64,000 bases of DNA from Salisaeta longa DSM 21114 (lineage in GTDB: Bacteria > Bacteroidota > Rhodothermia > Rhodothermales > Salinibacteraceae), in NCBI RefSeq assembly GCF_000419585.1, contig NZ_ATTH01000001.1:2705001-2769000 (forward strand), written 5' to 3'. Each line of letters starts with the position of its first letter. The first letter of the stretch is position 1. Under the pieces are notes generated by a model, which ran no database searches, had not been told where the DNA came from, and was given only the letters and a program-made list of their open reading frames with translations. Positions 6,382 through 23,728 of this stretch are shown piece by piece. Position numbers and translations under genes: made by a program.

Positions 6382-7368
6382 CTAGGCATCCTCCGTTGAG
6401 GTCGACCACTCGCTGATCGGCGAAGAGGTCTCATCGCTCCATTGCAGCGCCTCGTACAGCCCCAGCATCAGGGCGCTGATCACCAAGGGCAGCAAGTGAA
6501 AGATACCACGAAAGGCCAGCAGCACCCCCGCGATGGTCGAAGTTTCCAGATACGGCTGCAAGAGGAGAAGCAGGAGGCCGTCAAACACGCCCAACCCGCC
6601 CGGAATCTGACTCAGTACGCCTGCGCTAAGGGCCAGTACAAACGCGCCCACCACGTAAAAGAAGGGAATGGAAGCGCTGGTGGGCAGCAAGATGTAAAGC
6701 ACCGCCGCCGTAACCATCAGCTCCAGTGCGGCCAGGCCCACCTGCACAGGAATCATCCAGAGCTTGGGCATGGGGAGGACGGTGCCCATCAGCCGTACAG
6801 GGCGCGAGCGAACCGCCGCGGTCACCACGTAGGCCACCACCGGCAATCCGATAAGGATGCCCACCATCCAGGCGTGCTGCTTCATCTCAAGCGCGCCCAC
6901 CAGGGCCGGCGGCTCCATAAACAGGAGCAGGCTGCCAATGCTCAGCAGCCCAATCCAGAACGAAACGCCGCCAAACACGACCGTTGTGGCAATCGTGTAG
7001 GGGTCCACATCCCATTCCGAGTACAGCCGGTACCGCACCGAGCCGCCGGTAACCAGCGCCCCCCCTAAGGCGTGGCTAAAACTGTAGCCGATGAACGACG
7101 CCAGCAGCACGCGCCGGTACGCCAGGCGGCGATGGGCAAAGCGGAGCGCGAGGACATCGTAGCCCGAGAGGATGACGAAGTTGAGGGCCGTGAGCACGAT
7201 GCCCCACCCGATGTTGAGCAAGGGCAGGCGCGAAAGATAGTCGCCTACTTCGTAGTACGGAAAGCCCCGCACCTCGTGGTAAATAAACCATGCGGCAGCA
7301 CCAAAGAGCACCAGCCCAAGAAGGGGCGGCAGGTATTTGCGGAGGGCTGCACGAGAAGGCATAGGCAT
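6382..7368 (-). CDS. YbhN/UPF0104-type integral membrane protein
   Basis: A 328-residue polytopic protein of the lysylphosphatidylglycerol-synthase transmembrane (YbhN, UPF0104) superfamily. About eight hydrophobic segments are seen, with the conserved features SFIGYSFSHALGGALVTGGSVRYRLY and, near the end, GVLSQIPGGLGVFDG, which is a hallmark of this group. Only the membrane (flippase-like) half is present; there is no C-terminal aminoacyl-transfer domain, so lipid aminoacylation is not implied. The start is taken at 7368 (MPMPSRAALRKYLPP) because the longer frame to 7440 adds a low-complexity basic extension. It is divergent from nothing and converges on the TIM-barrel gene. Confidence 0.78.
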   Translation of the reverse strand: MPMPSRAALRKYLPPLLGLVLFGAAAWFIYHEVRGFPYYEVGDYLSRLPLLNIGWGIVLTALNFVILSGYDVLALRFAHRRLAYRRVLLASFIGYSFSHALGGALVTGGSVRYRLYSEWDVDPYTIATTVVFGGVSFWIGLLSIGSLLLFMEPPALVGALEMKQHAWMVGILIGLPVVAYVVTAAVRSRPVRLMGTVLPMPKLWMIPVQVGLAALELMVTAAVLYILLPTSASIPFFYVVGAFVLALSAGVLSQIPGGLGVFDGLLLLLLQPYLETSTIAGVLLAFRGIFHLLPLVISALMLGLYEALQWSDETSSPISEWSTSTEDA

Positions 7369-7512
7369 GCGCACAGGCGATGAGGGACGAGCACTTGCAT
7401 TGCGCCGTACGGCGTTGGGTTCCGCCACGGGCGACAACATTACGCGATACTACAAAAACCTTGCGAGCGCGCCGCCAAAATGCGTGGCCAAACAGCTTGC
7501 TGCGAAGGCGCA

Positions 7513-10217: not shown

Positions 10218-10327
10218 AAACAAGCAGTTGATGGTGGATTGTGACGCGGTGCTGAAATTGTTCGCGGCCCGCGCGCGTTCCAACCAGTGGCCCTTGCAAC
10301 CCACGTGCGTAACCACTATTCTACACG

Positions 10328-10409
10328 TGGCTGGAGGTGCCTGCGCCGCGCGCAGCGCTGAGAACATACTCCCGAACCTGCTCCGGATTATGCCGGCGAA
10401 GGAAAGCCA
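10328..10409 (+). ncRNA. TPP riboswitch (THI element) upstream of tenA
   Basis: The conserved THI-box parts are present in order: closing helix strand TGGCT (10328-10332) with partner AGCCA (10405-10409), GGAGGTGCC, a GC-rich variable helix, GCTGAGA (about 10367-10373), CCGAACCTG, and CCGG...ATGCCGGCGAAGGAA. The core CTGATCC of the consensus reads CTGCTCC here, a single departure. It lies 82 bases before the tenA ATG. TPP binding would be expected to lower expression of the downstream genes, as known for this class. No obvious intrinsic terminator follows, so control of translation or a weak terminator is possible. Confidence 0.88.
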
Positions 10410-10491
10410 AGCGACGTGGTGCGTAGGCGTCGCGCTTCGGCCCGCAGCACGGCCAGCCGTCCTGCTTCCGTGCACAATCCTACGTTCTGCC

Positions 10492-11226
10492 ATGTCTGTA
10501 TCTGCCGACGCCCTCGAAGCGCCCACCCCGCTCGACGCGTATCCCTTTGCGGTGCCCCCGTTTGCCGTTCGCTGTATGGAGGCGGCGCACGACGCATGGG
10601 GCGCCGCGTTTGGCCATCCGTTCGTGCAAGCGCTGGCCGAAGGCTCGCTGGCGACCGACCGGTTTCGATTTTACCAGATGCAGGATGCCCGCTACCTCGA
10701 AGCCTTTGCCGACGCCGCGGCGCTCATCGCCACACGGTGCCCGCGCCCTGCAGACAAAGAGTGGTTTATCGACGCGGCGCGCCTGGCCCTGGTGGTGGAA
10801 CGCGAATTGCACGCGGAATATGGTGCCACGTTGGGCTACACGCCCGACGACATTCGCACCCTTACGCTCACGCCCAACAACCGGGCCTACCAAGATCACA
10901 TGATCCGTCAGGCGCAAACGGCTTCGTTGGTGGAAGCCACCGCGGCCCTTACGCCGTGTCCGTGGCTGTACGTCGACCTGGGCCAGCGGCTGGCACGCGT
11001 GCTTCCCGAGATTCCCGACGACCACCCGTACGCCGACTGGCTGGCCACCTACCGCGACCCGTCGTTCAACGAATACATGGACCACCTGCTGACGCGCCTG
11101 CAGCGCTTTGCCGAGGCGGCCGATGATGCGGCCCGGCAGCGAGCGGTTGCGGCGTTCCGAACCAGTGTGCGCTACGAGTGGATGTTCTGGGAGCAAGCGT
11201 GGACGCAGCAGGCGTGGCCGGTATAA
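10492..11226 (+). CDS. tenA: TenA family thiaminase II
   Basis: A 244-residue all-helical TenA protein. TenA hydrolyses aminopyrimidines such as aminomethyl-HMP for thiamine salvage; some members lack this activity. Visible residues are Cys156 in TPCPWLYVDLG (the usual catalytic Cys region, with Tyr160), and RYEWMFWEQAW near the end (Glu229, Trp233), matching the C-terminal acid-aromatic motif. Length is close to the family's 220-240. ATG 10492 follows the TPP riboswitch by 82 bases, which independently supports thiamine metabolism. The next gene begins 30 bases downstream in the same direction. Confidence 0.92.
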   Translation: MSVSADALEAPTPLDAYPFAVPPFAVRCMEAAHDAWGAAFGHPFVQALAEGSLATDRFRFYQMQDARYLEAFADAAALIATRCPRPADKEWFIDAARLALVVERELHAEYGATLGYTPDDIRTLTLTPNNRAYQDHMIRQAQTASLVEATAALTPCPWLYVDLGQRLARVLPEIPDDHPYADWLATYRDPSFNEYMDHLLTRLQRFAEAADDAARQRAVAAFRTSVRYEWMFWEQAWTQQAWPV

Positions 11227-11256
11227 CGATAGCTTTTTCCTCGTCTTTCCATTGCC

Positions 11257-12048
11257 ATGGTTGCGGCTTCCGAGCAATCCCGTGCCGCCTCAATCCCCGA
11301 TGAGACCTTTGCGAGCGGCGCGTACGAAGCTTTTTTTGCGCGCACCGTCCGCGCCATACGGGCCGCGCAGTGCCTGCGGTACCAGGTCTTCAACATGGAA
11401 AAAGCGCAGGGCCTTGCCGCCGGCCCCGCGGGGCGTGACGCCGATGCGTACGACCCGGCCTGCCATCACCTCATCGTGCAACACAGCCCTACGCAATCGG
11501 TGGTGGGCACCTACCGGATGCAAACGCATGCCATGGCGCAAGCGGGCAACGGCTGGTACAGCACGTCGCTGTTCGATTTGAGCAGTTGGCCGCTGGCGGT
11601 CCAGCAGCAGGCGGTGGAAGTGGGCCGGGCCTGCATTGCCCGCGACCACCGGGCGCTGCCCGTGTTAAACCTGCTGTGGCGCGGCATTGGGGCCTACCTG
11701 GCCCATCACGAGGCGCGCTACCTCTTCGGCTGCTGCTCGGTAGACAGTCAGGACCCTGCCGTTGGGGTGGCGCTGCACCGCTATCTCCAGAACGAAGGTG
11801 TGGTCCATCCAACGCTTCATGCGCCGCCCCAACCGGGGCACGCGTGTGTACTGGCCGGTGACGACGCGCCGTCCGCCGCCGATGCCTCTGCCATCCCACG
11901 CCTGATGCGCGTCTACCTGCGCATGGGAACGCGCATCTGCAGCTCGCCCGCTATCGACCGTGCATTCAAAACCATCGACTTCCTTGCCTTCTTCGACATC
12001 AACGCCCTCAGCGACTCCGCCGCCCGTTTCTTTGGGTACGATCGGTAA
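11257..12048 (+). CDS. OlsB-like GNAT acyltransferase (ornithine N-acyltransferase type)
   Basis: A 263-residue protein of the GNAT-fold OlsB family, which transfers a 3-hydroxyacyl group from acyl-ACP to ornithine to make lyso-ornithine lipid. Family features: AAQCLRYQVFNME early, CHHLIVQHSP, VVGTYRMQTH, the LFDLSSWPL stretch, VEVGRACIARDHR, LLWRGIGAYLAHHEARYLFGC and SVDSQDP. It is followed immediately by a PlsC-type acyltransferase, the OlsA position, which strengthens the ornithine-lipid reading. It lies 30 bases after tenA with no clear terminator between, so it may sit under the TPP riboswitch. Amino-acid specificity (ornithine, glycine, glutamine) cannot be told from sequence. Confidence 0.78.
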   Translation: MVAASEQSRAASIPDETFASGAYEAFFARTVRAIRAAQCLRYQVFNMEKAQGLAAGPAGRDADAYDPACHHLIVQHSPTQSVVGTYRMQTHAMAQAGNGWYSTSLFDLSSWPLAVQQQAVEVGRACIARDHRALPVLNLLWRGIGAYLAHHEARYLFGCCSVDSQDPAVGVALHRYLQNEGVVHPTLHAPPQPGHACVLAGDDAPSAADASAIPRLMRVYLRMGTRICSSPAIDRAFKTIDFLAFFDINALSDSAARFFGYDR

Positions 12049-12058
12049 AGCGCGCGCC

Positions 12059-12829
12059 GTGCGCCGCCTGCTTGGCATCATCGGGTGGACGCTCCTGATG
12101 CTCGTGCCGGTGCTGTCGGGCAACGCCCTGGTGTGGGGGCACGAGCGCTGGGGCGGCCTGCCGTTCAGCTATTCGTGGCGCGACCGCTCGGTGTCGTGGT
12201 GGGCCCGCGGCCTTATCTTCTTGGCGGGCGTGCGGATACGAGTGCGCGGCGCGGTGCCCACACCGCCCTTCTTTTTGGTCTCCAACCACCTCAGCTACGT
12301 CGATGTGTTTGTGCTGCAGGGGCTAACGCCCACGGCCTTTGTGGCCAAGGCGGAGGTGCGCTCGTGGCCGGTGCTGGGCTTTTTGGCCATCATCGGCGGC
12401 ACGCTCTTCATCGACCGCGAGGCCCGGCGCGACGTGCTGCGCATCAACCGGTTGCTGGAGGACGCCCTCGACCGCGGCGCGGGCATCGCGATCTTTCCGG
12501 AAGCGACCACCACGGCGGGCGACCGCGTGCTACCGTTTAAGGCATCGCTCCTGGCCCCCATCGCCGCGTCTACGCAACCCGTGCAGGTGGCCACCATCCA
12601 CTACGACACGCCCGAGGGTGCGCCGCCCGCGAGCGATGCGGTGTGCTGGTGGGGCGACATGGCGTTTGCGCCGCACGGGTGGGGCCTGCTGCAGTTGCCG
12701 CGCGTGCAGGCGACGGTCACCTTCCAGAAAGCCCCGAACGCTACCGACGACCGAAAGATGCTTGCCCAAACCCTGGAGGCCAGCGTGCGCGAGGCCTTCG
12801 TGCCGGTCGATGCCCCGGTTCCTTCCTAG
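12059..12829 (+). CDS. PlsC/OlsA-like 1-acyl-sn-glycerol-3-phosphate-type acyltransferase
   Basis: A membrane-bound acyltransferase of about 256 residues. Hydrophobic anchor at the start (LLGIIGWTLLMLVPVLSG), then the catalytic HX4D motif in SNHLSYVDVF, the substrate-binding GGTLFIDRE block, and FPEATTT in place of the usual FPEGTRS. In OlsBA systems this enzyme adds the second acyl chain to lyso-ornithine lipid; elsewhere it makes phosphatidic acid. The GTG at 12059 is preferred because it lies 10 bases after the olsB-like stop; an ATG at 11960 would overlap that gene by 89 bases. The stop overlaps the convergent gene by 4 bases. Confidence 0.8.
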   Translation: MRRLLGIIGWTLLMLVPVLSGNALVWGHERWGGLPFSYSWRDRSVSWWARGLIFLAGVRIRVRGAVPTPPFFLVSNHLSYVDVFVLQGLTPTAFVAKAEVRSWPVLGFLAIIGGTLFIDREARRDVLRINRLLEDALDRGAGIAIFPEATTTAGDRVLPFKASLLAPIAASTQPVQVATIHYDTPEGAPPASDAVCWWGDMAFAPHGWGLLQLPRVQATVTFQKAPNATDDRKMLAQTLEASVREAFVPVDAPVPS

Positions 12830-21524: not shown

Positions 21525-21592
21525 CAAAAGGCGCACGGCAGCGCAGACGCCGGTTGTATTTGCGCGGGTGCCGCGTTAGCTTGAGGTCATGC

Positions 21593-23728
<2,136 letters not shown>

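What the first reader, a model, noticed from the sequence alone, without database searches (positions are those of the whole stretch)
10328..12829. TPP riboswitch heads an apparent tenA-olsB-olsA operon
A THI-box riboswitch precedes tenA, as expected. But tenA is followed at 30 bases by an OlsB-like gene and then an OlsA-like gene, with no hairpin terminator between, so ornithine-lipid-type synthesis may be co-regulated with thiamine status. I know of no such coupling. It could instead be a chance gene order with an unseen promoter.
Basis: partly seen in the sequence, partly recalled or inferred. Interest (0 to 1): 0.6.

Follow-up and report, generated by a model that had tools for sequence, protein, structure and literature searches.

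The report
Thiamine-switch gene fused to lipid genes
In this salt-lake-type bacterium a vitamin-B1-sensing RNA switch and its usual gene sit only 30 bases upstream of two genes for amino-acid-containing membrane lipids, and relatives show that the signals which normally separate the two units are missing here, so the lipid genes are probably read from the vitamin switch's promoter, though whether vitamin B1 really controls the lipids is unproven.

Summary
A TPP aptamer (10323-10421, 51.1 bits, E 2e-8) precedes tenA (10492-11226). olsB (11257-12048) follows 30 nt later, then olsA (probably GTG 12059-12829). No terminator or promoter-like signal lies in the tenA-olsB gap. The gene order is not chance: all four olsB-bearing genomes of the family (three genera) have olsB directly after tenA, although both flanks differ. 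In 13 genomes of other families with both genes they are unlinked. But the relatives do not support ancestral co-regulation. Their gap is about 240-390 nt and holds a conserved promoter (CTGG-N-CTCGTACGTTwC, 15-16 bits), plus, in one genus, a strong hairpin after tenA. Both are missing in the window genome, where the only visible promoter is the one before the aptamer. So tenA-olsB-olsA is probably one transcript here, a lineage-specific joining of two units. TPP switches in this family look translational (a hairpin over the start codon, no U-tract). TPP would therefore reach olsBA only indirectly, by polarity, and the window's tenA leader shows no predicted switching. Thiamine-lipid coupling is possible but weakly supported. 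No paper found reports it.

The parts
10294..10324 (+). promoter-like TTG-N20-TATTCT (Bacteroidota -33/-7 type) directly 5' of the aptamer
   Evidence: PWM trained de novo on this genome, 9.0 bits, 88th percentile of coding controls; spacing 20 as enriched genome-wide
10323..10421 (+). TPP riboswitch aptamer (RF00059)
   Evidence: cmscan 51.1 bits, E 2.2e-8; TPP before tenA in 23 of 24 tenA-bearing genomes of the family
10413..10494 (+). tenA leader: GACGUGGUGCGUAGG pairs with CCUACGUUCUGCCAUGUC, covering the tenA start codon; no U-tract
   Evidence: MFE folds with and without aptamer enforced
10492..11226 (+). tenA, thiamine salvage (TenA/thiaminase II family, with the PCPWLY cysteine motif)
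   Evidence: PF03070 124 bits; TIGR04306 134 bits, over cut-off
11227..11256 (+). 30-nt tenA-olsB gap lacking terminator and promoter
11257..12048 (+). olsB-like amino-acid N-acyltransferase
   Evidence: PF13444 97 bits; closest NCBIfam models OlsB, below cut-off; clade with the other olsB genes of the family, 97/93
12059..12829 (+). olsA-like lyso-lipid O-acyltransferase (start GTG 12059 inferred from homology)
   Evidence: PF01553; closest NCBIfam models OlsA, below cut-off; homologue downstream of olsB in relatives
21589..21688 (+). second TPP riboswitch, upstream of thiC (21737-23728): reference for how the family's switch works
   Evidence: 70.2 bits; ThiC equivalog 1035 bits; fold predicts start-codon occlusion when the aptamer forms

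Best explanation
In this genome tenA, olsB and olsA form one transcription unit started at the promoter just 5' of the TPP aptamer. It arose because the tenA-olsB intergenic region lost, or never contained, the tenA terminator and olsB promoter seen in relatives. The riboswitch itself most likely acts on translation of tenA: TPP makes a hairpin close over the start codon. TPP therefore affects olsBA only secondarily, through polarity (early termination or decay of an untranslated tenA message), or hardly at all. Shown: the parts, the linkage, the conserved promoter in relatives and its absence here. Inferred: co-transcription, the translational mode, the direction of the change, and the weak effect on lipids.
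For: The tenA-olsB gap is 30 nt with no terminator-like site and no promoter better than the median of coding controls within 200 nt upstream (best 4.3 bits). The three relatives with the same order (G003, G010, G005) have gaps of about 240-390 nt with a near-perfect promoter of the genome-derived Bacteroidota type (16.0, 16.0, 15.3 bits; above all coding controls). The unlinked olsB of another family (G032) also has one (13.1 bits). A strong GC hairpin follows tenA in G003 and G010. Same-strand gaps of -60..50 nt are strongly operonic in this genome (87 of 215 same-strand pairs against 6 of 53 divergent pairs). Neighbour pairs with opposite strands or wider gaps are never kept between G000 and G003 (0 of 32), while tight same-strand pairs often are (13 of 18, tenA-olsB among them). 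Family tenA leaders share GGCUUCGC...GCGAAGCC-AUG over the start codon, with the P1 5' strand repeating GCGAAGC. For thiC in the window the start is predicted open when free and closed when the aptamer folds (0.69 to 0.27).
Against: No transcript data. The promoter matrix has limited sensitivity: only about a quarter of intergenic upstream regions exceed 10 bits, and it does not cover alternative sigma factors. A promoter inside tenA cannot be excluded. The direction of change is not settled, because the window's olsB branches first among the four. Folding of the window's own tenA leader predicts an occluded start with or without the aptamer, so even TPP control of tenA is uncertain here.
Confidence: 0.62

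Rival explanations
1. Real functional coupling: TPP scarcity raises tenA and olsBA together, so that aminolipid synthesis responds to thiamine status as a regulated trait.
For: TPP-tenA-olsBA is kept as a block in three genera although both flanks differ. In the window genome nothing separates the units. In Bacteroides thetaiotaomicron the whole TPP-led biosynthetic operon falls at the RNA level with thiamine (PMC5613172).
Against: In the relatives olsB has its own strong conserved promoter, and G003/G010 have a hairpin between. In G005 the aptamer is degenerate (20.4 bits, E 0.83) while olsB is intact. The family's expression platform is translational, and the window leader shows no predicted switching. 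No biochemical rationale is known.
Confidence: 0.2
2. Neighbours by descent only: olsBA keeps its own promoter, here hidden inside the tenA 3' end or of another sigma class, and is independent of the riboswitch.
For: Independent promoter in all three linked relatives. Promoter matrix of limited sensitivity. T-rich TAGCTTTT at 11230 resembles a weak -7 element (4.3 bits).
Against: Best candidate scores like random coding sequence, and the 30-nt gap leaves no room for the 35-nt promoter outside tenA.
Confidence: 0.18

Closest known systems
TPP (THI-box) riboswitch upstream of tenA
   Same: Aptamer, position and gene are the classic arrangement, ancestral in this family
   Different: Two membrane-lipid genes follow tenA without a separating signal; leader P1 and start-codon hairpin sequence differ from the family's GGCUUCGC/GCGAAGCC form
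OlsB/OlsA ornithine lipid synthesis pair
   Same: Gene order olsB-olsA, acyltransferase families, closest curated models are OlsB and OlsA
   Different: Scores lie below the curated cut-offs; amino acid unknown; known induction is by phosphate limitation and other stress (PMC11631085), not thiamine
TPP-led operons of Bacteroides thetaiotaomicron (thiSEGCHF-tenI, OMthi, pnuT-tnr3)
   Same: TPP-led multi-gene units in the same wider group; whole biosynthetic operon responds at RNA level (PMC5613172)
   Different: All genes there are thiamine biosynthesis or transport genes; none makes lipids

Membership tests
TPP riboswitch (RF00059) | Covariance-model score at or above gathering score 54.3 | tested here: not met
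   51.1 bits, E 2.2e-8; narrow miss
TPP riboswitch (RF00059) | Full-length aptamer with CUGAGA and GAACCUG-type ligand-binding cores, in front of a thiamine gene | tested here: met
   Model positions 1-105 matched, CUGAGA and ACCUG..UCCGG kept; orthologous elements before tenA in 22 further genomes, most above cut-off
TPP riboswitch (RF00059) | Binds TPP and changes expression | not testable with these tools
   Needs in-line probing or reporter; folding shows no predicted switch for this leader
TenA (TIGR04306) | Score over curated cut-off 130 | tested here: met
   134.1 bits
OlsB (NF052555 / NF052554) | Score over curated cut-off 320 / 350 | tested here: not met
   133.3 / 114.7 bits; best-matching families nonetheless, GlsB only 20 bits
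OlsA (NF052553 / NF052552) | Score over curated cut-off 300 | tested here: not met
   144.4 / 134.5 bits
OlsB/OlsA pathway | Adjacent olsB-olsA order in homologues | tested here: met
   63 of 80 OlsB loci from many phyla have an OlsA homologue within 500 nt downstream
OlsB/OlsA pathway | Product is an ornithine lipid | not testable with these tools
   Needs lipid mass spectrometry
Operon (single transcript) | No promoter or terminator between genes | tested here: met
Operon (single transcript) | Bridging transcript observed | not testable with these tools
   Needs RT-PCR or RNA-seq

The most novel reading that the evidence does not exclude
A thiamine pyrophosphate riboswitch controls synthesis of phosphorus-free aminolipids in one halophile lineage, through a transcription unit created by loss of an intergenic terminator and promoter.
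Probability: 0.2. Interest if true: 0.65.

Novelty: new variant of a known kind. Interest (0 to 1): 0.42.

Why it matters
If the lipid genes really follow the vitamin switch, this would be a first link between thiamine status and membrane aminolipids. More surely, the four related genomes give a compact natural series: one gene order, with and without separating signals, with intact and decayed aptamers. In it one can watch an unrelated gene pair come under, or escape, a riboswitch. The family-wide start-codon hairpin also bears on the stated uncertainty of how TPP riboswitches work in Bacteroidetes (PMC5613172).

Tried and rejected
Chance gene order: rejected, since all four olsB genomes of the family share it while 13 genomes of other families with both genes do not. 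Conserved TPP control of olsB across the clade: rejected as the reason for linkage, because relatives have an olsB promoter in the gap and G005's aptamer is degenerate. Transcription terminator in the leader: no U-tract after the aptamer in the window, and T-runs in only a minority of the 19 leaders. E. coli-type promoter consensus: no site in the region, and TATAAT is depleted genome-wide, so a Bacteroidota-type matrix was trained instead. Glycine lipid synthase GlsB: only 20 bits. The first genome-contig scan with the single sequence found no relative; the alignment query found 440 relatives, the best 80 of which were kept, and only two of those, both already known from the family, have tenA nearby. 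Literature searches joining TPP riboswitch or thiamine with ornithine lipid returned nothing.

Full report
The parts are real. The Rfam default scan finds only one TPP aptamer in the window, the one before thiC at 21589-21688 (thiC). A sensitive scan finds a second at 10323-10421, 51.1 bits, E 2.2e-8, just below the curated cut-off. It is credible because the same element stands before tenA in 23 of the 24 tenA-bearing genomes of the family, mostly above cut-off. tenA, olsB and olsA are confirmed by domain and family models. The OlsB and OlsA scores lie well below the curated cut-offs, so the amino acid of the lipid is not established; glycine-type GlsB fits much worse.

The window lies in a 3.4-Mb genome of a family of Rhodothermales-type bacteria (named relatives). 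One relative's chromosome length, 3,551,823, is what I remember for Salinibacter ruber, so I take the family to be Salinibacteraceae; that identification is from memory and was not tested.

Linkage. In 114 genomes of the order, 23 have this OlsB and 57 have TenA. Within the window's family, OlsB occurs in four genomes of three genera, and in all four it lies directly downstream of tenA on the same strand. In the 13 genomes of other families that hold both, they lie on different contigs or, in one case, 114 kb apart. OlsB of the four forms one clade (97/93), the window's branching first. Upstream neighbours of tenA differ between the window and G003/G010 (whose neighbours are shared with G001, which lacks olsB), and the genes downstream of olsA differ too. 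So the block has been kept while its surroundings changed. Between the window genome and G003, adjacent pairs on opposite strands or more than 50 nt apart were never kept (0 of 32 comparisons), and only tight same-strand pairs were (13 of 18, tenA-olsB and olsB-olsA among them). These counts use a simple gene caller, 400 kb of one genome and 800 kb of the other, and count pairs in both directions.

What separates the units in relatives. In G003, G010 and G005 the tenA-olsB gap is about 240-390 nt. I recovered the promoter type of the window genome from 214 intergenic upstream regions: TTG, exactly 20 nt, TAnnTT (10 forward against 1 reverse), the Bacteroidota form. A matrix trained on these scores 16.0, 16.0 and 15.3 bits at a conserved site in the three gaps (CTGG...CTCGTACGTTwC), higher than every coding control. 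The unlinked olsB of G032 in another family has a similar site at 13.1 bits, which suggests that an own promoter is the older state. G003 and G010 also carry a strong hairpin after tenA, GCGGCGTCGC...GCGACGCCGC and a longer variant with paired changes in the outer stem. In the window genome the gap is 30 nt; neither element is there, and the best promoter score within 200 nt upstream of olsB is 4.3 bits, the median of coding sequence. The only plausible promoter is the one ending at the aptamer (9.0 bits). Gaps of this size are mostly within operons here. I therefore think tenA-olsB-olsA is one transcript in this genome, and that this is a local change rather than an old regulatory design.

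What the riboswitch would do. Leaders of tenA across the family carry GGCUUCGC, then a loop, then GCGAAGCC directly before AUG, and the 5' strand of the aptamer's closing helix repeats GCGAAGC. This is a ready-made choice. Without TPP the closing strand can pair with GGCUUCGC and leave the start free; with TPP the closing helix forms and GGCUUCGC covers the start. Folding the thiC leader of the window with and without the aptamer enforced gives just that (mean unpaired probability around the start 0.69 free, 0.27 with aptamer). Forcing the closing helix lowers start accessibility by at least 0.1 in 13 of 21 leaders. No U-tract follows the aptamer in the window. So TPP most likely blocks translation, not transcription. 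A translational switch on tenA does not directly cover olsB, which has its own start; an effect on olsBA would need polarity. In B. thetaiotaomicron a whole TPP-led operon does fall at the RNA level with thiamine, and the authors call the mode in Bacteroidetes uncertain (PMC5613172), so polarity is plausible. The window's own tenA leader, however, has a changed closing helix and a different start-codon stem, and no switching is predicted (0.25 against 0.26). In G005 the aptamer itself is degenerate (20.4 bits, E 0.83). In two of the three olsBA-linked genera, then, the tenA switch looks altered. I do not know whether this is related to the linkage.

Verdict. The further step, that ornithine-type lipid synthesis is regulated by thiamine, is possible but not favoured. 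Known induction of ornithine lipids is by phosphorus limitation and other stress (PMC11631085), and the two literature searches that joined thiamine or the TPP riboswitch with ornithine lipid found no paper.

Noticed in passing
21589-21780: TPP riboswitch before thiC with a predicted clean translational switch: aptamer closing strand and start-codon hairpin compete for GGUUUCGCAU.
   Followed up: yes
L001 (own genome C1:857808-857900, - strand): The genome's best-scoring TPP riboswitch (74.9 bits) precedes a short-chain dehydrogenase/FabG-like gene rather than a known thiamine enzyme (named by eye from its translation, not searched).
   Followed up: partly
L003 (own genome C1:1836651-1836746): Fourth TPP riboswitch, before a ThiY/NMT1-like substrate-binding protein gene (named by eye from its translation, not searched).
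   Followed up: no
L049 2106-2201 (G005, - strand): TPP element before tenA is degenerate (20.4 bits): GC-rich with many broken pairs, but CUGAGA kept.
   Followed up: partly
6382-7440: Lone MprF-like flippase/transmembrane domain protein (190 bits to MprF N-terminal part) near the lipid genes.
   Followed up: no
G000 400 kb (L097-L116): De novo promoter pattern TTG-N20-TAnnTT, Bacteroidota type, with sharp spacing of 20 and -7 consensus TACGTT/TACCTT.
   Followed up: yes
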